Of a stretch of 25,642 bases of DNA, positions 10,390 to 19,255 are shown piece by piece; positions within the stretch are counted from its first letter, which is position 1; every line of letters begins with the position of its first letter. The DNA is from a virus, in the IMG/VR virus record IMGVR_UViG_3300031598_000022, positions 1 through 25,642 of that record. One strand, written 5' to 3'. The notes beneath the pieces are model-generated. The model saw nothing but the letters and a program-made list of their open reading frames with translations, was not told the DNA's origin and ran no database searches. The position numbers were made by a program, and so were the translations under genes.

Positions 10390-10789
10390 AATTTACTTTT
10401 TTATTTCCTATATTATATTTTGCTGTTAATGTCCATTCATCTTTTTCTTTATATGAAAGAATTTTTAATTGATTTAATGGAACAACTAATGTAGCTGTTT
10501 GATCAGAATTTACTAATTTTATAAGACTCCATTCAACTAATAAATTTGATATTGTATTTCTTCTCGCTTGATCATTTTCTGAAAAATCTGTAGGTTTACC
10601 ATCTAATATAAACAATTCTTTAAAATGAACGATAAAATATCGCCCCTGTTTATGTAATATATGACAAGATTGAAATAATGTCTTGTCCTTTCTTGATGCA
10701 ACCCCAATTCTTGTAAGTGTTTCTCTAATCTTTAAAAAGTCATCTGGTTCTGCTAGAGTACATTCTACCATCTCATCGATGTTTGCCAT
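10349..10789 (-). CDS. regA: RegA translational repressor
   Basis: This homologue of T4 RegA binds early mRNAs around start codons and blocks ribosome binding. The core from residue ~8 matches the family closely: PDDFLKIRETLTRIG, SCHILHKQGRYFIVHFKE and ILSYKEKDEW, ending near KYNIGN. T4 RegA has 122 residues and this has 146; the extra part is a charged C-terminal tail (KKVNYEKSENREAGGNS) that overlaps dut. I chose ATG 10789 because GGAGA lies 6 nt upstream; an ATG at 10846 would reach deep into gp62. It overlaps gp62 by 17 nt, so the T4 order 62-regA is kept. It probably regulates clamp, clamp-loader and other early genes here. Confidence 0.93.
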   Translation of the reverse strand: MANIDEMVECTLAEPDDFLKIRETLTRIGVASRKDKTLFQSCHILHKQGRYFIVHFKELFILDGKPTDFSENDQARRNTISNLLVEWSLIKLVNSDQTATLVVPLNQLKILSYKEKDEWTLTAKYNIGNKKVNYEKSENREAGGNS

Positions 10790-11186
10790 TATTATTCTCC
10801 ATTCCACCTTTTGCAAGTTTATTCGAAATCTCTTTGATATCCTCACTAGTAAGGATTTCTAGAGCATTCTTTGCTTTTTCATTACCGAAACCAAAATACT
10901 CTTTGACTAGTTCTAGATTATCAATTTTGTCTGGTTTCAACCATTTAGACCATCTTTTTCGTGGTCTAATGTTATTTAGTAAATAGTCGAATTGGAGTTT
11001 ATTATCAAGAAAATGTAACCTATTCATTTCATTGACTTGTATGACTGTATCTTGAAAAAAGCTGAACCCACGATTGATAAGAAAAGGAATATAATCCTTT
11101 TCCGTCATAGGATCACCATCATTCATGATATTTTTATGATCATTAATGGACTTTATAAATTCAAATGGACCTATTTTATTTTTCAT
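10773..11186 (-). CDS. 62: Clamp-loader small subunit, gp62-like
   Basis: This 137-residue protein is the non-ATPase subunit of the T4-type clamp loader, which with gp44 opens the gp45 ring. The assignment rests on the sequence pattern common to small clamp-loader subunits of T4-like marine phages: EKDYIPFLINRGFSFFQDTV, a LDNKLQFDYLLNNIRPRKRWSKW segment (seen in shorter pieces), and a C-terminal acidic helix (LTSEDIKEI). It also rests on its place before regA. It is shorter than T4 gp62 (187 aa). In T4 it directly follows gp44; here about 6.4 kb of other genes lie between. It has its own promoter at 11193-11220. Confidence 0.85.
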   Translation of the reverse strand: MKNKIGPFEFIKSINDHKNIMNDGDPMTEKDYIPFLINRGFSFFQDTVIQVNEMNRLHFLDNKLQFDYLLNNIRPRKRWSKWLKPDKIDNLELVKEYFGFGNEKAKNALEILTSEDIKEISNKLAKGGMENNNGKHR

Positions 11187-11229: not shown

Positions 11230-12921
11230 TTAACCCAATGATCTATTATGCTCTTTGAGTGTGGGAGTTAAATTTGATAATTCTGTTTCTCCACCATATT
11301 CTACTTTTTTCATGTGGTGTGTTTCTGTATCTGAAGAAAAGGCTTGCCGTGGAGTTAGTTTTTCACCTCCGATACCATCTATAAAATCTGATGTAACTAG
11401 TGCGTCTCTTTTTTGATTTTTAGAAACTGCTCCACTATCCACCTTTAAAACAATAATATTTCTATCTAAGTAATCCTGTAATCTTTCATCCAATTTTGCT
11501 TTTAGATATCTTATTCTTGTTTTCATATAAGAGATTTTGTTATTTCTGTATGTAGCAGAATAGCTATCATCATTTTTTGTATATTCATGTACCCCATAAT
11601 CATCTATACTATATTTTCTTCCCGCAAAGTTCCCTGACAGCTTCTTCATTTTCTTTTGTGTACACTTTGAAGATTGAAAGTTTGAAACTGGTCCAAAATA
11701 GGCATCTTCAAAATTAGACATCCTTGCTGCTTCATCTTCAATAAAATCATTAATCCAAATTCTTTTATCTAAAATTTTATACTTATCGAATTGATTCTCT
11801 CTTGAAAGTTTATTCCCATAAGTAATACATTTCATAAGAAGACAATAACTCTTAAGAACATTAAGACCTGAAAGAGTATTTAAATTATCCAAAGGTTTTT
11901 TATTAGTGAATCCATAACCTAATATTTTAGCAAAATCAGAGAGCCATTTTTTTACATTAACAAAATGACTTTTAGGTGGTATTCTTTCTTTGTTAAACTC
12001 TCCTGAATATGTTTCTAAATCTTTATCCTCAGGCCACTCTTTGTGATCAGGCGCAGTAAATAAACACAATTCCATTAAAAATCTACGATCTCCATATATT
12101 TCAATACCGTATGTGTTTCCAGTAAACAGTTTAGGATTAAAACGAAACATCGCCTTTATAGCAGGATCATTTAATATTGTCATCATTCTCGCTTTTAATA
12201 AAGAAGGACCTAAATAAACCTTTTGAAAAAAACTCCACGGATCAGTAGAATTTACACCAATTACCATTTGCTTATAAATTTCAAATGTGCCTTCATTTGA
12301 GATGGCACAGCAAACTTTAACGTTTTTAATATCTTGTTTAACGAGCTCCGGTAAATCTTTAAACAAATAATTTTTCCCCGCTTCCATTCTGAAAAATTCT
12401 AAATCTGTCTCTTTATCGTTCCATTTTCTAACTTCTTTCATGTTTAATGGAAATTTATTTTCAAAAAATTTCGTTATTGGTTGATCAATTCTTGATTGTC
12501 CATCAAGATTTAGATAAGCAACTTTTCCTTGTTCTTCGGCTTCATCCTTAATTTTTTGAAATTCTTCTTTGACTTCTTGAAATCCTTGTGCACGTTCTGG
12601 TTCACTTTCCTTACAGTTTTCAATTTCATTATTACAATGGTTAATAAGACTATCAACCTTAACAACAATATAATGATGTAGCGTATGACCACCACAAAGT
12701 AAGGTTTCCCATGTTGATTGATTTCGTGGAATTGTCCATTTACTTATTTGAATTAATCTTTGTAAATTTTCACTACTAGATACCAATGTATGCTTTGAAT
12801 GTTTTCCTGTCCACATTGTATACAGATCCCAAAGGGTAGCAAACTCAAGTTCAAAATTTACATCAAGTTTACGTACTATTGCTTCAACTTCACGTTTTTC
12901 TTTGCGTTTTTCACTTTGCAT
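11230..12921 (-). CDS. DUF262-HNH nuclease-like protein (GmrSD/SspE-like architecture)
   Basis: In this 563-residue protein the N-terminal half contains YLNLDGQSRID (136-146), the (D)GQ-x-R signature of DUF262 (ParB-like NTPase/GmrS domain). The C-terminus ends in an HNH-type nuclease motif: HH at 535-536, Asn550 (GGETELSNL) and Asn559 (EHNRSLG). DUF262 plus HNH/DUF1524 is the layout of type IV GmrSD enzymes, which cut modified DNA, and of SspE, which acts with DNA phosphorothioation. The central part is novel to me. It has its own strong promoter (12961-12989) and a GAGAG ribosome site. It may attack rival phage or host DNA, with self-DNA spared by modification, or act as a mobile-type nuclease. 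The fold call is good; the role is open. Confidence 0.75.
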   Translation of the reverse strand: MQSEKRKEKREVEAIVRKLDVNFELEFATLWDLYTMWTGKHSKHTLVSSSENLQRLIQISKWTIPRNQSTWETLLCGGHTLHHYIVVKVDSLINHCNNEIENCKESEPERAQGFQEVKEEFQKIKDEAEEQGKVAYLNLDGQSRIDQPITKFFENKFPLNMKEVRKWNDKETDLEFFRMEAGKNYLFKDLPELVKQDIKNVKVCCAISNEGTFEIYKQMVIGVNSTDPWSFFQKVYLGPSLLKARMMTILNDPAIKAMFRFNPKLFTGNTYGIEIYGDRRFLMELCLFTAPDHKEWPEDKDLETYSGEFNKERIPPKSHFVNVKKWLSDFAKILGYGFTNKKPLDNLNTLSGLNVLKSYCLLMKCITYGNKLSRENQFDKYKILDKRIWINDFIEDEAARMSNFEDAYFGPVSNFQSSKCTQKKMKKLSGNFAGRKYSIDDYGVHEYTKNDDSYSATYRNNKISYMKTRIRYLKAKLDERLQDYLDRNIIVLKVDSGAVSKNQKRDALVTSDFIDGIGGEKLTPRQAFSSDTETHHMKKVEYGGETELSNLTPTLKEHNRSLG

Positions 12922-13046: not shown

Positions 13047-14480
13047 TCATCCGAAAAAACTCTCTAATGGATTTCTTTGTCCATAATGTGACAAATAAGA
13101 TTCTTTGATTCGTTCTTTATGATTCTTGAGGTAGATAGTATGACAACCATCTTGAAAAGTTTTCTTTGGTCTGAATAAAAGTTCATCTGAAACTTTACCC
13201 GAAAAGGCTTTTCTCAACATTGGTTTCCACATCGGACCATCTTCTTTGTATTTTGGTGGTATTCTCAAACAAAACTCAACCAAATCTTTGTGTAGAAATG
13301 GTGTTCTTAATTCAACTGTTCCACCATACATCATTGCTTTATTGGTACGTATTAAATTATTCTTATGAAGATTCATTACTAATTTATATCTTTCTTTAAT
13401 GTAATCTTTGTCCTTATAGTTCCACGCAAATACATGACCATAAGATGCAAACAATTCATCACTACCCTCTCCACCAAAAACGACCTTAAATCCTTCTTCA
13501 CGAATTCTCTTAGCAAGTGCTAATTGAGCAACTGCCGGTGAAACTTGTGTCCAATTATAATCTTCGACTGCATAGACTGCTTCACTCATATTTTGTTCAA
13601 CCCATTCTTCATCAATAATTACTTCATGAAGTGGAACACCTATTTCTTTACTTGCCATTCGGGCATAATACAAATCATCTTTCTTACCAGTATCACCGAC
13701 ACTCACTACAAAAGCCTGTAGGTCTGGAATTTTTTGTTTAAGTAGATACGTGATGATTGTGGAATCTACACCACCAGATAAAATTGTACATACTGGTACA
13801 TCGCTTATCAATTCATTCGATACACCTTCAGTTAACAAATCTCTAATGCCATCTATTACTTCTCTTTCTTCCATTTCTTCAATATCAGTTATGGCAGGAA
13901 ACTCGTAAAATTTTGTTTTTTCTAAATTTCCTGTTTCATAATCAAATATGTAATAACAGCCTGGGTCTGCTAACATAACATCAGAGGCGTTGATATTTAA
14001 TGATTTTGTAATTGTCTTTAGTTCACTTGCAACCACAATTTCTTTACCCTTCTTAAAAAAATACAAAGGGATTCTACCTATAAAATCTCTGGCAAAAGTA
14101 AGTTTCTTCTTTTCTTCATCCAAGACCGCAAATCCAAACATGCCATCAAGAGTTTTAATACAATCTTCTTGATCTAAATGAAACATATTCAGTAGTAATT
14201 CAGTATCACTTCCTGTATGTAGATCAAATTTAGATTTGTGTGAATCCATACTTCGCCATAGTTCACCATTGTAAACTAATGTGTATGGTTTTTTAAACAT
14301 TGGTTGCTTTGATTCTTCATTTAACCCCTGAATCGAAAGTCTATTATGACCCAACCAAAAATTAGTTTTTTCATTATATTCAATACCCTTACTATCTGTA
14401 CCACGATGATCTATAAGTTTTAGAGCATCGACAAACTGTTTTTCAGATGTAAAAATATTTCCAGTAATAAACCCACACAT
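13047..14480 (-). CDS. Asparagine-synthase-type glutamine amidotransferase
   Basis: This 477-residue protein has the AsnB fold: an N-terminal class II glutaminase domain joined to an ATP-PPi synthetase domain that turns a carboxylate into an amide. The catalytic Cys2 follows Met1 directly. Supporting glutaminase residues are present: Arg26 in DHRG, NGELW at 71-75 and GSDTE at 90-94. The synthetase P-loop is SGGVDS (235-240), and GGEGSDELF (336-344) and VELRTPF follow. It is shorter than E. coli AsnB (554 aa) but intact. GGAG lies 7 nt before the ATG. The start shares one base with the stop of the dehydrogenase-like gene. Family members amidate aspartate but also other small molecules, so the substrate here is unknown; the location favours DNA or nucleotide chemistry. 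Confidence 0.93.
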   Translation of the reverse strand: MCGFITGNIFTSEKQFVDALKLIDHRGTDSKGIEYNEKTNFWLGHNRLSIQGLNEESKQPMFKKPYTLVYNGELWRSMDSHKSKFDLHTGSDTELLLNMFHLDQEDCIKTLDGMFGFAVLDEEKKKLTFARDFIGRIPLYFFKKGKEIVVASELKTITKSLNINASDVMLADPGCYYIFDYETGNLEKTKFYEFPAITDIEEMEEREVIDGIRDLLTEGVSNELISDVPVCTILSGGVDSTIITYLLKQKIPDLQAFVVSVGDTGKKDDLYYARMASKEIGVPLHEVIIDEEWVEQNMSEAVYAVEDYNWTQVSPAVAQLALAKRIREEGFKVVFGGEGSDELFASYGHVFAWNYKDKDYIKERYKLVMNLHKNNLIRTNKAMMYGGTVELRTPFLHKDLVEFCLRIPPKYKEDGPMWKPMLRKAFSGKVSDELLFRPKKTFQDGCHTIYLKNHKERIKESYLSHYGQRNPLESFFG

Positions 14481-15346
14481 TAATCATCTCCAAATAACGA
14501 ATTTGACCTTCGTTCCAAAACTACTCTACTATTTCTGTGAGGTGGCTCATACTTAGGATTATCAATCAATAGCCATTGAACTTCACCAAACACCATACTA
14601 AAGTATCGTTCATCATATTGTGTCACACCATTTGCTTCCCATGCTTTATGCCCATGATAATCTACTTTTCCTGTTGCTATCAGCTCATCTCTTCCTTTGG
14701 AATCTAACATATCCATTTGAGCATTTTCTACTCTACCATCATTAACAGCTTCAAGTAATGCTTCATTATCTATGCAGACGGGTCTAGATATTGAGATAAT
14801 ATTTCCATGAAAGTTTTTTAACAATTCTTTATTCACGATTGGTCTGTCTGTAGGTGTAGAAGAAACTACTATTGTATTAAAATTCTTCATATCAGGAATT
14901 AAATCTCGCGAGGTAATTTTTGTTACATCACTTTCAAACTCCCACGGAACAGCATTACCAATTTTCCCTGCTCCTAATATTAAAATATTTTTACCCTTCT
15001 TGAATCTACCAATCCAATTTGCTACATTGTATGTATCTGGATCTAGACAAACAACTCCTACTCTATGATTCTCTGCTAATTTTAAATTAATATTATCTGA
15101 TCCATGTGCTCTACATTGAATCCATTTTAGATTTGGATATGCCTCAAATGTTTTTTGTCCTATCTTGGAAAACTTTACACTCAATACTTCTGTTTCAAGA
15201 TCACGTTCAATTTCATCTTGAGAACCCATGATCTTATAATCTTCCCACTCAAGTTCATTATCTGTTATTTCATCCCAGTTTTCATACCCCTCAAACTGAA
15301 ATAAATGATTCATATCTTTCTTATCTTTTAATACAACTCTACTCAC
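14480..15346 (-). CDS. D-2-hydroxyacid-dehydrogenase-like protein (NAD-binding)
   Basis: This 288-residue protein matches the D-isomer-specific 2-hydroxyacid dehydrogenase family. The substrate-domain motif is NLKWIQCRAHGSDNI (about 72-86), and the Rossmann GxGxxG is GAGKIG (125-130). A typical segment, VVSSTPTDRPIVNKELL, follows, then ISISRPVCIDNEALLEAV, with Arg188 at the family's catalytic Arg position. The usual catalytic Glu and His near the C-terminus are not obvious, and the protein is shorter than the common 310-330 aa. Redox chemistry may therefore be altered. The start is GTG 15346 with a perfect AGGAGG and a GTGA overlap with the upstream PLP gene. It should act in the same pathway as its coupled neighbours. 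Confidence 0.82.
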   Translation of the reverse strand: MSRVVLKDKKDMNHLFQFEGYENWDEITDNELEWEDYKIMGSQDEIERDLETEVLSVKFSKIGQKTFEAYPNLKWIQCRAHGSDNINLKLAENHRVGVVCLDPDTYNVANWIGRFKKGKNILILGAGKIGNAVPWEFESDVTKITSRDLIPDMKNFNTIVVSSTPTDRPIVNKELLKNFHGNIISISRPVCIDNEALLEAVNDGRVENAQMDMLDSKGRDELIATGKVDYHGHKAWEANGVTQYDERYFSMVFGEVQWLLIDNPKYEPPHRNSRVVLERRSNSLFGDD

Positions 15347-16149
15347 CAGTTACCTCCTAAATTCCAAAATAAAATTCTTCCTTCAAATTTTTGTATATTT
15401 TCTTCTAACCAATACCATGCCTTCTTGTCCCAAAATTCATTACATGGAAATGGTGTTTCATATGATTCCATCATATCGTCAAATTCAAATTCACTCTTGA
15501 CTATTTCAATTTGTTCTGATGGCTGTATTTTATGTTTCTCAAATTTCTTTTTGATAGTATTCTCACCAGACACACAAACAGTATGAAATGTTCTATTGTT
15601 TCTAGGATCTAATAGAGAAGACCATGGCTCATGTTCTAACATCAAACCTAAACAAGTAACACCAGAACCAGAAGAAACAACCAAATGATCAAAGTCTAAT
15701 TCTTTCTTAACTTCTTTTAGTCTTTGTCTTTGCGTTGCTATATAGACATCATGATCAAACGCATATGGAAGTCTAATGTAATTCTTTTCCCTTGCTATCT
15801 GACCAACCTTATTATACATTATATTCATCATATTAGGTTTAATAGGAAGAATATTTTCAGATTTTTCTAAGATACGTTGTGGGAATTTCTTGGACTCCGG
15901 ATAGGCCATAATAAATTCATAATCTAATTCTTTTGACACTTCAGCGAGTGCCCACCCAGACCAAGAACCATAAACAGAAAGATGTATTAAAGGTTTTGAT
16001 GGTTTAATAGTAGTCAGTACATTCTTGAGAGCGGTCAATTTGCCCCACGGCGGATGTACTGTGCCGTCACCCATTAAATCATCACGTTTCACATGAACTT
16101 GTTTACCTTTTACAGTATAAGTTTCAATTGGTGTAATTTCATTAATCAA
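15343..16149 (-). CDS. PLP-dependent fold-type II enzyme (ACC deaminase/D-cysteine desulfhydrase-like)
   Basis: This 268-residue protein has VHVKRDDLMG (18-27) followed by PPWGKLTALKNVL, resembling the KRDDL...GGNKxRKL signature of the ACC-deaminase/D-cysteine-desulfhydrase family. Lys37 is the likely PLP lysine. HLSVYGSWSGWALA corresponds to the cofactor-phosphate and substrate SNH region. SSGSGVTCLGLM and the C-terminal LFWNLGGNW match the Ser/Gly-rich and final TGG regions. It is shorter than usual (about 330 aa), so substrate range is uncertain. The only reasonable start is TTG 16149, with GGGG 5 nt upstream and an 8-nt overlap with the methyltransferase-like gene. Reactions of this family include deamination and beta-elimination or replacement. 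Confidence 0.8.
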   Translation of the reverse strand: MINEITPIETYTVKGKQVHVKRDDLMGDGTVHPPWGKLTALKNVLTTIKPSKPLIHLSVYGSWSGWALAEVSKELDYEFIMAYPESKKFPQRILEKSENILPIKPNMMNIMYNKVGQIAREKNYIRLPYAFDHDVYIATQRQRLKEVKKELDFDHLVVSSGSGVTCLGLMLEHEPWSSLLDPRNNRTFHTVCVSGENTIKKKFEKHKIQPSEQIEIVKSEFEFDDMMESYETPFPCNEFWDKKAWYWLEENIQKFEGRILFWNLGGNW

Positions 16150-17584
16150 AGAACCCCGCTAATGATGATTTTTCTTTAGATGTTTCTGAGAACTTTTTCT
16201 TTTTGATTGGTTCTTGAACCACGGCCGGTCCCATACCCCCCAAAGTAGAATCTTTAAAAGGAGCAAATAAATCAGCATCTTCTCCGCCAGGCTTTTGAAA
16301 ACACCAAACAGATTCGATAAACCACTTTGCTTGCCATTCATCGTATTTTGCTTTTTTTTCTTCATGTGTATTTCCCTCAAAAGATTTTATGCTTTTCGGG
16401 CGTGCCATGATTCTCATTCCGATTTGACCTTTGAAATATTCTTTAAGATCATTTACTAAATCATCACAAGACTTATGGCGTTTACCTTTGACTTTAGGAT
16501 CCATAATATTAACCATTAGCCATCCACCTGGACTCAATTTATCAAATGCTTTTTTCATTACAGGAAGATAGAATCCATCTCTCCATTCTTCATAAGAATT
16601 ATATCTACTCCAAGATTGTTCACCCTCAAACTTACTACCTTCTGCATATCGTTCAGTAGCAAAGTATGGTGGAGAACTAAACATAATATCTATGTCATTA
16701 GGAATTTCATCCCACGGCAAATCTTCAGCAGGGTATCTATAAATTTTTACTTTCTTTTTACCTTCAACTGAAAACCATTTATCACCAAACTCAGATTTTG
16801 GAGATTCTTCACCTAACCAATTTTCATATTGGACTGCCATCTTGTGATAATTTTCATGGAGATCACCATTCGGATCCATTCCATAATATTCATCGGCATT
16901 AGAAGCAAAAAATCCTGCCATTCTATCACCCCAACCTGAACTGGTATCAAGTACTTTTTTTGATTTAGTAAAGTCATAAAATGCTTTTGCTACCGATGGT
17001 TTGAATTGACCTGCAAAATAAGCACCGACTCGAATACCCTCGATATACATATTATTCTTAAGAGGCATTCCACAATCCGGATGAAGTCTCCATATCGGTG
17101 AAAGTATTTGTTTTAAATTTGTTTGCTCCTCCCACATTTCAATCGGACTTGGTGAACGATCATAACCACATTTCATTCGTTCACGATTCATGAACGCGTC
17201 AGCCATAGTATTATGAGTTGCACTAAAATTTAAAATTCCTATTCCCCATTCTGGAAAATTACCCACGTAATCATCGTATTTTTCGTGAACGGTTTTACAT
17301 TTTTCTTTTGGGAAAATATTATCTTTTAAACTAAGCTCACACAAGTCATGAAAATTCTGTCTAACTTCGTGCATATCAAATTCCCGGAATGGAAATTTAG
17401 GGTGGTGTTTTTCAAAGAAATGAATCATAGTATCGATCATGACTTTCGCCCGCTTAGACATAGGCAAAGACATATCTGTATCGACATACTTTGTATTTAG
17501 ATTCTGCCAAGTAAATAAATCGAATACTGGCAATCCATATTCATTAGTATTATCTTCGTAAATTTTTAATAATTCTTCGTTCAT
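16142..17584 (-). CDS. DNA methyltransferase-like protein with SPPY motif
   Basis: This 480-residue protein has an AdoMet-type fold. Motif I is VLDTSSGWGDRMAGFF (about residues 211-226), followed by an acidic strand end YYGMDPN. The catalytic motif IV is SSPPYFATERY (about 303-313), the form of N4-cytosine and some N6-adenine DNA methyltransferases. A final Rossmann strand, SPGGWLMVNIMDP, follows. The N-terminal ~200 residues are unusual for such enzymes and may bind DNA or another partner. I chose ATG 17584, overlapping the gp44 stop (ATGA), rather than TTG 17596. It is the first accessory gene after gp44. It could methylate bases or, with its neighbours, install a larger group. Confidence 0.82.
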   Translation of the reverse strand: MNEELLKIYEDNTNEYGLPVFDLFTWQNLNTKYVDTDMSLPMSKRAKVMIDTMIHFFEKHHPKFPFREFDMHEVRQNFHDLCELSLKDNIFPKEKCKTVHEKYDDYVGNFPEWGIGILNFSATHNTMADAFMNRERMKCGYDRSPSPIEMWEEQTNLKQILSPIWRLHPDCGMPLKNNMYIEGIRVGAYFAGQFKPSVAKAFYDFTKSKKVLDTSSGWGDRMAGFFASNADEYYGMDPNGDLHENYHKMAVQYENWLGEESPKSEFGDKWFSVEGKKKVKIYRYPAEDLPWDEIPNDIDIMFSSPPYFATERYAEGSKFEGEQSWSRYNSYEEWRDGFYLPVMKKAFDKLSPGGWLMVNIMDPKVKGKRHKSCDDLVNDLKEYFKGQIGMRIMARPKSIKSFEGNTHEEKKAKYDEWQAKWFIESVWCFQKPGGEDADLFAPFKDSTLGGMGPAVVQEPIKKKKFSETSKEKSSLAGFFD

Positions 17585-18519
17585 TTGAATTCGCAATCCA
17601 CCATCATCTCTGTGAGACAGGCGACTAGGTTAATTTCTTGGTCTGCAACAAACGCAGACTTATATTGATATTCTGCAATGATAAGAATAGCTTGAGGAAT
17701 TGAAGTATCTTTGAGATGTTCATGTATTCCGTCATAAATCTTTCGGAAAATTCTTACTGGATCATTATCGACATTTTGAGTAACCCATTTCCGTACTTCA
17801 GAAAAATGTTTACCCTTCAAGGCTTTCATTAATTCAAGAAGATTGATTTCACCAATCTGTGCCAAGATACCAGCATCAATAACTCCGCCAGCAGCGTATC
17901 TTTGAAGTTCGTTTATCACTCTCCTCATATCTGGAAAGTGTTTCAAAACCAATTCAACAAGAACTTTTTCATCAAACTTGATCTCTTTCAATGTCAAGAT
18001 TTCTTTAACTCTTTCCAGACATTCTTGACCCAGTTTAGGTTTCTCTGATCTTGGAATTACAAATTCTATTACAGAGCAACGGCTATGGATAGGATCAATG
18101 ATCCGATTACGAAAATTACAAGTAAAGATAAAACTAACATTGGCGCTAAATTTTTCAATGAACCCCCTAAGTGCCGGTTGAACCGATTCAGCATTCATGT
18201 AATCTGCCTCATCGACTATAACAACTTTTCTTCCACCAGTCATTGAGACTGAACTACAATATTGCTGTAGAAGTGTTCTGACAGTATCTATGTTCCTGCC
18301 TTCATTTGAACCATTTATCATTAAATAGTCCAAACCTATTTCATCACACATAGCACGAGCTATTGTGGTTTTACCTACACCTGCTCCACCCGATAAAAGT
18401 AAATTGGGGATTTTGCCATCATCAACGAAACCTTGAAAGACTTCTTTAACGGGTTCTAATAGAACGCAGTCCGCCACTCTTTTAGGGCGGAACTCTTCTA
18501 CCCATAAAAAGTTTTCCAT
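17581..18519 (-). CDS. 44: Clamp-loader large subunit (AAA+ ATPase), gp44
   Basis: This 312-residue AAA+ ATPase opens and loads the gp45 clamp. It begins with WVEEFRPKRVADCV, typical of clamp loaders. Walker A is GGAGVGKT (44-51) and Walker B is VIVDEADYMN (Asp103, Glu104). Sensor I is IFTCNFRNR, and the SRC arginine finger is in HSRCSVIEF. The length equals T4 gp44 (319 aa) within a few residues. It starts 2 nt after gp45 and its stop overlaps the start of the methyltransferase-like gene, so the accessory cassette is translationally linked to it. The matching subunit gp62 is now 6.4 kb downstream, behind another promoter. Confidence 0.96.
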   Translation of the reverse strand: MENFLWVEEFRPKRVADCVLLEPVKEVFQGFVDDGKIPNLLLSGGAGVGKTTIARAMCDEIGLDYLMINGSNEGRNIDTVRTLLQQYCSSVSMTGGRKVVIVDEADYMNAESVQPALRGFIEKFSANVSFIFTCNFRNRIIDPIHSRCSVIEFVIPRSEKPKLGQECLERVKEILTLKEIKFDEKVLVELVLKHFPDMRRVINELQRYAAGGVIDAGILAQIGEINLLELMKALKGKHFSEVRKWVTQNVDNDPVRIFRKIYDGIHEHLKDTSIPQAILIIAEYQYKSAFVADQEINLVACLTEMMVDCEFK

Positions 18520-18521
18520 GT

Positions 18522-19190
18522 TTATCCGTTATAGTTTGAATTTTGTTCTGTTGCAATCCAATATTGTAATTTGGAATGTTCGTGTGCGAAATGTGCAATT
18601 CCTTTGGAAGAAATTCCGACTTGATAACCACCACTCAAAAGTTTCATGTTCTCGATTTTGAAAACCATTTGAAAATCTTTATCCGTTTCACCAACTTCTT
18701 TTCGAAATTCATCAGAAGAATTATTATTGGTATCAGTTGCTACCAAAAATATTTTACTTTTATCACCTTGTACAACTAATTCTGGTAATGATAAAACTTG
18801 TGCCGCTTTTAGACAGGCATCGTATGCGTCCTTCGGCATTTTGAAATTGATTTCTGGATCAGGAAAGTCAAGTTTTTTCTCTGGAGGTAAGACTAACATA
18901 GCTGGATCTCCATAAACATAATCTAGTTCATAGTCACCATTACTAATATTCAATTTATTTTCTCCTAGATTTAATTCTGGCGCTTTTTCAAAAAGACTGA
19001 GTGCACCCAACAATTTATTAAGATCATAGACAGCAAATGTGCTGGGAATATCTTCACTAATTTCTGCACTAGTTAGGATGTTTTTTTGGGGTGAGATTGT
19101 TGAGAGTGTTTTACCTTGTTTGAATTGTATATTTTGATTTATTGTCGCGTAGTTTTTAAGTATCGCAGTTGTTTCAGCCGTTAATTTCAT
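18522..19190 (-). CDS. 45: DNA polymerase sliding clamp, gp45
   Basis: This 222-residue subunit of the trimeric ring holds gp43 on DNA and, in T4, also activates late transcription. The start region, MKLTAETTAILKNYATINQNI, and FAVYDLNKLLGALSLF closely match T4-type clamps. The length matches T4 gp45 (228 aa). The second of two tandem ATGs (19190) is preferred because AAGGA lies 5 nt upstream; the first is too close. It opens the operon from the promoter at 19228-19255. Since T4 gp45 couples replication to late transcription, its presence with a TATAAATA box suggests the same circuit here. Confidence 0.95.
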   Translation of the reverse strand: MKLTAETTAILKNYATINQNIQFKQGKTLSTISPQKNILTSAEISEDIPSTFAVYDLNKLLGALSLFEKAPELNLGENKLNISNGDYELDYVYGDPAMLVLPPEKKLDFPDPEINFKMPKDAYDACLKAAQVLSLPELVVQGDKSKIFLVATDTNNNSSDEFRKEVGETDKDFQMVFKIENMKLLSGGYQVGISSKGIAHFAHEHSKLQYWIATEQNSNYNG

Positions 19191-19227
19191 CATATTCCTT
19201 GTATGTTTAGTATTAATTGTATATCTT

Positions 19228-19255
19228 ATTATATCATGTATTGTTGATTTGTCAA
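19228..19255 (-). promoter_or_regulatory. Sigma70-type promoter of the gp45-gp44-cassette operon
   Basis: The minus strand has TTGACA (19255-19250), a 16-bp spacer and TATAAT (19233-19228), 5 bp beyond the stop of the glycosyltransferase gene. The transcript would run through gp45, gp44 and the four coupled cassette genes. Confidence 0.88.

What the first reader, a model, noticed from the sequence alone, without database searches (positions are those of the whole stretch)
13047..17584. Four-gene enzyme cassette inserted in the clamp-loader operon: candidate DNA hypermodification pathway
In T4, gp44 and gp62 are adjacent. Here they are about 6.4 kb apart, and gp44 is followed by four tightly overlapping genes: SPPY-type DNA methyltransferase-like (ATGA overlap with gp44), PLP fold-type II enzyme, 2-hydroxyacid-dehydrogenase-like protein and asparagine-synthase-type amidotransferase. 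Overlaps of 1 to 8 nt and good ribosome sites show they are made together with the replication clamp. Only the first enzyme has an obvious DNA-acting fold; the others would make or amidate a small amino-acid-like molecule. Phages are known to build complex bases by multi-enzyme routes (for example Mu Mom acetamido-adenine and the hypermodified thymidines). I infer a modification of cytosine or adenine that carries an amino-acid or amide group, made at or just after the fork. Alternatives are metabolite supply to the host or modification of a protein or glycan.
Basis: partly seen in the sequence, partly recalled or inferred. Interest (0 to 1): 0.85.

Follow-up and report, generated by a model that had tools for sequence, protein, structure and literature searches.

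The report
Swappable phage DNA-base decoration enzyme cassette
A marine virus of bacteria carries, among its DNA-copying genes, four enzymes that most likely build an unusual amide- or amino-acid-bearing DNA base, and across many related viruses two of the four are swapped together for a different pair, which suggests a modular way to make new DNA letters.

Summary
Four same-strand genes (methyltransferase-like MT, PLP enzyme, 2-hydroxyacid-dehydrogenase-like HADH, asparagine-synthase-like ASN) overlap by 4, 8, 4 and 1 nt behind gp44, in the gp45-gp44 unit, and separate gp44 from gp62 by 6.4 kb.

It is not local. In 43 unique IMG/VR loci with enough flank, the PLP enzyme is always accompanied by exactly one of two partners: HADH (29) or a short thymidylate-synthase-like protein (14), never both or neither. 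MT is present in 39 and ASN in 29. ASN and partner are replaced together about five times on the PLP tree, while ASN itself splits once.

DNA is the best-supported target. The PLP enzyme belongs to the phage family that sits in the M6 thymidine-hypermodification cassette. ASN keeps its catalytic residues but lacks the arginine of true asparagine synthetases. In some loci its slot holds a protein closest to CmoY, shown elsewhere to form an amide on phage DNA. M6's ADDT and kinase and S-B43's CmoA were not found in 19 records of up to 288 kb.

Verdict: a probable new variant of phage DNA hypermodification. Base, order of steps and product are unknown; no chemistry has been shown.

The parts
16142..17584 (-). 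MT: class I SAM-methyltransferase-like protein with SAM motif (DTSSGWGDR) and SPPYF motif IV, plus N-terminal extension; 480 aa
   Evidence: PF01555 24 bits, below cut-off 26.7; SPPY and SAM motif invariant in 30 homologues; AlphaFold pLDDT 86.6; Rossmann MTase fold, Z up to 15
15343..16149 (-). PLP fold-type II enzyme, relative of Pseudomonas phage M6 gp52; 268 aa, TTG start
   Evidence: PHROG_7093 6.5e-24; 27% to M6 over full length, shared PFPCN..D.KAW and FWN.G motifs; Lys37 invariant; pLDDT 95; D-cysteine desulfhydrase/ACC deaminase fold, Z 23.8
14480..15346 (-). HADH: D-2-hydroxyacid-dehydrogenase-like protein closest to glyoxylate reductases; 288 aa, GTG start
   Evidence: PF00389, PF02826 over cut-off; glyoxylate reductase 4e-13; Arg, His and GxG motifs kept in all 59 relatives
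13047..14480 (-). ASN: glutamine-dependent asparagine-synthase-type amide ligase lacking the aspartate-binding Arg; 477 aa
   Evidence: Cys1, PP-loop, GEGSDE and Lys449 kept; TTIR changed to TQVS
17581..18519 (-). gp44 clamp-loader large subunit, overlaps MT by ATGA
   Evidence: PHROG_168 4e-115
18522..19193 (-). gp45 sliding clamp, first gene of the unit
   Evidence: PHROG_223 3e-67
19228..19255 (-). promoter-like site TTGACA-16-TATAAT in front of gp45
   Evidence: 12 of 12 matches
10773..11186 (-). gp62 clamp-loader small subunit, 6.4 kb from gp44
   Evidence: PHROG_225 1e-39

Best explanation
The four genes are a phage DNA-base hypermodification cassette made together with the replication clamp. 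Shown here by sequence: tight linkage, family membership, kept catalytic residues, and replacement of the ligase plus its partner as a pair. Inferred: (1) the MT-like protein acts on bases of phage DNA, installing the first group or adding methylation; (2) the PLP enzyme works on an amino-acid-like group destined for, or already on, the base; (3) the NAD(P)-dependent HADH, or in other phages the short thymidylate-synthase-like protein, makes the acid-bearing intermediate; (4) ASN activates that carboxylate with ATP and joins it to ammonia from glutamine, giving a carboxamide. Some relatives use a glutaminase-less, CmoY-like ligase instead, which would join an amine. The result would be DNA carrying an amide or amino-acid side chain, presumably against restriction nucleases. 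The order of steps and the target base are not determined.
For: PLP belongs to the phage family of M6; M6-like phages carry it in the thymidine-hypermodification cassette (PMC9476957), next to ADDT in M6. A GTDB scan found only 3 relatives outside viral collections. In 43 unique loci PLP always has exactly one of HADH or TS-like; MT in 39, ASN in 29. Conversely all 31 TS-like loci with enough flank have PLP (HADH is absent in every one listed). ASN and partner switch together: 5 changes on the PLP tree, 1 on the ASN tree; forcing the TS-type PLPs into one clade is rejected, p-AU 5e-55. ASN lacks the Arg of the AsnB TTIR motif but keeps catalytic residues. Cultured phages place ASN relatives in DNA-modification clusters: TurkishDelight (C5-MTase, ASN, SAM-MTase, ParB) and Motura (7-deazaguanine genes). 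In L189, L191, L197 and L227 the ASN slot holds a 308-aa ligase whose best match is S-B43 CmoY, shown to form 5-glycyl-carboxymethylcytosine (PMC12783734).
Against: No nucleoside analysis exists, and the phages are uncultured contigs. ADDT, 5-hmdU kinase and CmoA are absent from 19 records, so the installing enzyme is unidentified; those records may be incomplete. The MT assignment to DNA is weak: below the Pfam cut-off, with tRNA and small-molecule MTases as nearest structures. Similarity of PLP to M6 is only 27% and M6 gp52's exact reaction could not be read in the held papers. ASN is missing from 14 of the 43 loci.
Confidence: 0.68

Rival explanations
1. The cassette makes or recycles a free amino acid or other small metabolite for the host during infection (auxiliary metabolism); MT is an unrelated DNA methyltransferase placed next to it.
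For: PLP, HADH and ASN all belong to families of ordinary amino-acid metabolism; no DNA product has been shown; HADH is nearest to glyoxylate and hydroxypyruvate reductases.
Against: ASN has lost the aspartate-binding Arg in all relatives tested. The PLP family is almost confined to phages and is shared with a DNA-modification cassette. The block is embedded in replication genes in many phages and its ligase can be a CmoY-like enzyme.
Confidence: 0.15
2. The enzymes modify RNA (tRNA or phage mRNA) rather than DNA.
For: The MT model is as close to tRNA m2G and m1A methyltransferases as to others; CmoA/CmoB-type and amide chemistry also occurs in tRNA modification.
Against: Linkage is to clamp, clamp loader, polymerase and nucleotide-reductase genes, not to tRNA genes; the related PLP enzyme, CmoY and 7-deazaguanine contexts are DNA modification.
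Confidence: 0.08
3. The enzymes make a modified sugar, glycan or peptide, for instance for virion or host-surface decoration.
For: Cluster c19 in one marine clade is weakly glycosyltransferase-like, and one cyanophage asparagine synthase sits in a glycan cluster.
Against: No sugar-nucleotide or glycan genes accompany the window cassette; that cyanophage ASN is very remote; the mutually exclusive partner is a thymidylate-synthase-like protein.
Confidence: 0.06

Closest known systems
Thymidine hypermodification cassette of Pseudomonas phage M6 and relatives (5-aminoethyl-dU)
   Same: Homologous PLP enzyme of PHROG_7093 with shared C-terminal motifs; placement near replication genes; in the TS-like variant also a thymidylate-synthase-fold protein whose best match of five tested is M6's own.
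   Different: No ADDT or 5-hmdU kinase in 19 records, no M6-type radical SAM protein in the held loci; adds ASN and HADH, which M6's annotated cassette region does not show.
CmoA-CmoX-CmoY 5-carboxymethylcytosine system of Synechococcus phage S-B43
   Same: Asparagine-synthetase-type ATP-dependent amide ligase in a phage cassette next to a methyltransferase; a CmoY-like ligase fills the ASN slot in four relatives. The paper also reports CmoY relatives with a glutaminase domain, untested.
   Different: No CmoA. The cassette MT has SPPY rather than the C5-MTase SPPC motif. PLP plus HADH or TS-like are additional.
Achromobacter phage Motura 7-deazaguanine cluster
   Same: An asparagine-synthase-type protein inside a DNA-modification gene cluster.
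   Different: 7-deazaguanine genes (QueC, QueE, TGT-like) are not in the window; that ASN is remote from the window's.
Phage Mu Mom (N6-carbamoylmethyl-adenine)
   Same: A carboxamide-bearing base is one possible product type (from memory).
   Different: Mom is a single acetyltransferase-fold enzyme; no homologue was found or sought here.

Membership tests
M6-type thymidine hypermodification | PLP enzyme of PHROG_7093 | tested here: met
M6-type thymidine hypermodification | Amino acid:DNA transferase ADDT (PF18724) | tested here: not met
   absent from 19 records up to 288 kb, found in M6 control; the window fragment itself was not in that search, and records may be incomplete
M6-type thymidine hypermodification | 5-hmdU DNA kinase (PF18723) | tested here: not met
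   same scope and control
M6-type thymidine hypermodification | Thymidylate-synthase-fold pyrimidine hydroxymethylase | tested here: inconclusive
   none in the 134-kb relative of the window; TS-like c12 present in the other variant
CmoA-CmoX-CmoY 5cxmC system | Asparagine-synthetase-type amide ligase | tested here: met
CmoA-CmoX-CmoY 5cxmC system | Phage-encoded CmoA (TIGR00740) | tested here: not met
   none in 19 records; control rings in E. coli; host Cx-SAM not excluded
CmoA-CmoX-CmoY 5cxmC system | C5-cytosine MTase (PF00145) with SPPC motif in the cassette | tested here: not met
   window MT matches only PF01555; motif is SPPY
Asparagine synthetase (AsnB) | Catalytic Cys1, PP-loop, GEGSDE, Lys449 | tested here: met
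Asparagine synthetase (AsnB) | Arg of the TTIR motif that binds aspartate (role from memory) | tested here: not met
   Ser in HADH-type, Met/Glu-type sequence in TS-type phage ASN
PLP fold-type II enzymes | Fold and Schiff-base lysine | tested here: met
D-2-hydroxyacid dehydrogenases | NAD(P) GxGxxG motif, catalytic Arg and His | tested here: met
D-2-hydroxyacid dehydrogenases | Catalytic Glu of the LDVFE motif | tested here: inconclusive
   Asp in the window clade, Gly or Ser in others
DNA N4-C/N6-A methyltransferases | SAM motif and [DNS]PP[YFW] motif with family score over cut-off | tested here: inconclusive
   motifs invariant, Pfam score below cut-off
Any DNA hypermodification system | A modified nucleoside in virion DNA | not testable with these tools
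   no DNA available; contigs from metagenomes

The most novel reading that the evidence does not exclude
A modular phage pathway in which a constant core (SPPY MT plus M6-type PLP enzyme) is combined with interchangeable ligase-partner pairs (glutaminase-ASN + HADH; glutaminase-ASN + short TS-like; CmoY-like ligase + TS-like), each giving a different, so far unknown, amide- or amino-acid-bearing DNA base by a route that uses neither 5-hmdU kinase/ADDT nor CmoA.
Probability: 0.42. Interest if true: 0.87.

Novelty: new variant of a known kind. Interest (0 to 1): 0.72.

Why it matters
Two known logics for complex phage bases, the amino-acid decoration of M6-like phages and the amide ligation of S-B43, appear here in one cassette with a third element that is swapped between a dehydrogenase-like and a thymidylate-synthase-like protein. 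If it works as proposed, marine and freshwater phages hold a family of unknown bases, and the natural swaps supply matched gene sets for finding out what each partner contributes.

Tried and rejected
Homology of the window HADH to M6 gp51 (the gene next to M6's PLP) was tested and rejected: no similarity, and gp51 is ADDT. A plain reading as asparagine synthetase was rejected on the lost aspartate-binding Arg. The M6 pathway as a whole and the CmoA/CmoX pathway as a whole were rejected for missing genes. Placing phage ASN rows in one DNA-ligase clade with TurkishDelight, Motura and CmoY was tried; those branches are too long to decide. A ligase was sought in the marine loci without ASN; none was found. 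Fold searches gave no DNA-specific match for MT among the rows shown. MetaGPA (PMC8670742) was searched for these enzyme names without result. Lee et al. 2018 and 2022, Wen et al. 2024 and Iyer et al. 2013 are not held, so the reaction of M6 gp52 (a decarboxylase, from memory) could not be checked. Literature searches found no description of this four-gene block, within an open-access library only.
Full report
OBSERVATION. The window is a 25.6-kb IMG/VR phage fragment. On the minus strand, gp45 (19193-18522) and gp44 (18519-17581) are followed by MT (17584-16142), PLP (16149-15343), HADH (15346-14480) and ASN (14480-13047), with overlaps of 4, 8, 4 and 1 nt. gp62 lies at 11186-10773, 6.4 kb from gp44, and regA follows it. 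A perfect promoter-like site precedes gp45. Ribosome sites are good for HADH and ASN, fair for PLP and weak for MT. The description is right; only 'good ribosome sites' is slightly generous.

WHAT THE PROTEINS ARE. PLP: PHROG_7093 6.5e-24, and 62 cultured phage records match over at least 80% of its length, nearly all Pseudomonas M6-like and Bordetella phages. It aligns with M6 gp52 over the full length at 27%, sharing PFPCN..D.KAW and FWN.G motifs. An AlphaFold model (pLDDT 95) has the D-cysteine desulfhydrase/ACC deaminase fold, Z 23.8, and Lys37 is invariant in 33 relatives. HADH: passes Pfam cut-offs and is closest to glyoxylate reductases; Arg, His and GxG motifs are kept in all 59 relatives, the acidic residue is not. 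ASN: full-length AsnB type. MT: a class I SAM enzyme with SAM motif and SPPYF invariant or nearly so in 30 homologues but below the DNA-MTase cut-off; its fold does not tell DNA from RNA or small-molecule substrates.

DISTRIBUTION. Searches with PLP and HADH returned well over a hundred viral loci, several of them overlapping stretches of the same contigs. Clustering of their genes shows MT, PLP, HADH and ASN together in T4-like marine phages and in large contigs of other phages, in changing order, near clamp, clamp-loader, polymerase, ribonucleotide-reductase or thyX genes. The same PLP profile found only three relatives in 84,980 bacterial and archaeal species genomes, a pattern-limited search.

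PARTNER EXCHANGE. Cluster c12 is a short thymidylate-synthase-like protein (Pfam 24.9 bits against a cut-off of 24.3; TIGR03283 1.3e-22 over its length, though below that model's cut-off) that keeps the Pro-Cys and Arg-Ser motifs and, of five thymidylate synthases tested, resembles M6's most. In 43 unique PLP loci with at least 3 kb on each side, 29 have HADH and 14 have c12; none has both or neither. MT is in 39, ASN in 29, a 2OG-type Asp/Asn-hydroxylase-like protein (c5) in 15. Conversely, all 31 c12 loci with enough flank have PLP. In 38 loci with PLP, ASN and one partner, the partner changes five times on the PLP tree, and a tree with the c12-type PLPs as one clade is rejected (p-AU 5e-55); on the ASN tree there is one change, c12-type ASNs being one clade with support 100. 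ASN and partner therefore travel together, whereas PLP stays. The trees are quick ones and the loci are related, so the count of five is approximate.

THE LIGASE. All cassette ASNs keep Cys1, the PP-loop, GEGSDE and Lys449 (E. coli numbering). The TTIR motif, whose Arg binds aspartate in AsnB (from memory), reads TQVS-like with HADH and TVQME-like with c12; the Parabacteroides and Lactiplantibacillus AsnBs keep the Arg. ASN probably amidates another acid. In cultured phages, the best relative (TurkishDelight, 34%) lies between a C5-cytosine MTase and a small SAM-MTase with ParB-like genes upstream, the arrangement of the published CmoX/CmoY/CmoA system; a remote one in Motura lies among 7-deazaguanine genes. 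In L189, L191, L197 and L227 the ASN slot between c12 and PLP holds a 308-aa ligase without glutaminase domain; among ten ligases compared, S-B43 CmoY scores best (BLASTP 24% over 252 aa, 3e-13 for the pair). CmoY was shown by others to join glycine to 5-carboxymethylcytosine in DNA (PMC12783734). This is the strongest single link to DNA.

WHAT IS MISSING. ADDT, 5-hmdU kinase and CmoA give no match in 19 records from 43 to 288 kb, with M6 as positive control for the first two and E. coli for CmoA. No thymidylate-synthase-fold protein is in the 134-kb relative of the window, which has ThyX. So neither published installation route is present as such, unless records are incomplete or the host supplies Cx-SAM.

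MECHANISM. Best reading (0.68): a DNA-base hypermodification cassette giving an amide- or amino-acid-bearing base. Shown: linkage, families, residues, co-replacement. Inferred: DNA as substrate, MT as base-targeting enzyme, PLP on an amino-acid group, HADH or c12 making the acid, ASN forming the amide. Rivals are free-metabolite synthesis (0.15), RNA modification (0.08) and glycan or peptide chemistry (0.06).

STATUS. It shares one or two components with each of two known systems but fails a defining feature of both, so it is filed as a new variant of phage DNA hypermodification. No held paper describes the block; Lee et al. 2018 and 2022 (thymidine hypermodification) are not in the library and may touch on it.

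Noticed in passing
window 11230-12921 (-): A 563-aa ORF between ASN and gp62 with its own 11/12 promoter match (12989-12961). By eye it has a DGQSR motif and a C-terminal HH..GG.T..N stretch like DUF262/HNH nucleases, but Pfam, NCBIfam and PADLOC give no hit and no relative was found in the first loci.
   Followed up: partly
L004 16754-17854, L015 18143-19243 and other loci: A 2OG-Fe(II) Asp/Asn beta-hydroxylase-like protein (c5) recurs next to PLP or before gp62 in 15 of 43 loci; the window lacks it. It may add a further hydroxylation.
   Followed up: partly
L021 6144-6959: A divergent PLP allele (43% to the window) inside an otherwise window-like cassette, i.e. an exchange of PLP alone.
   Followed up: no
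L054 8810-9796 and relatives (c19): A weakly glycosyltransferase-like protein regularly beside PLP and HADH in marine phages that lack ASN at the locus.
   Followed up: no
L015 12954-14000, L013 7471-8517 (c57): A DGQHT-motif protein (PHROG_2558, weak DUF6551) inserted between MT2 and ASN; the published CmoX loci also often carry ParB-type proteins.
   Followed up: no
L227 9462-11081: A GroEL-like chaperonin gene directly behind PLP in a cassette with the CmoY-like ligase.
   Followed up: no
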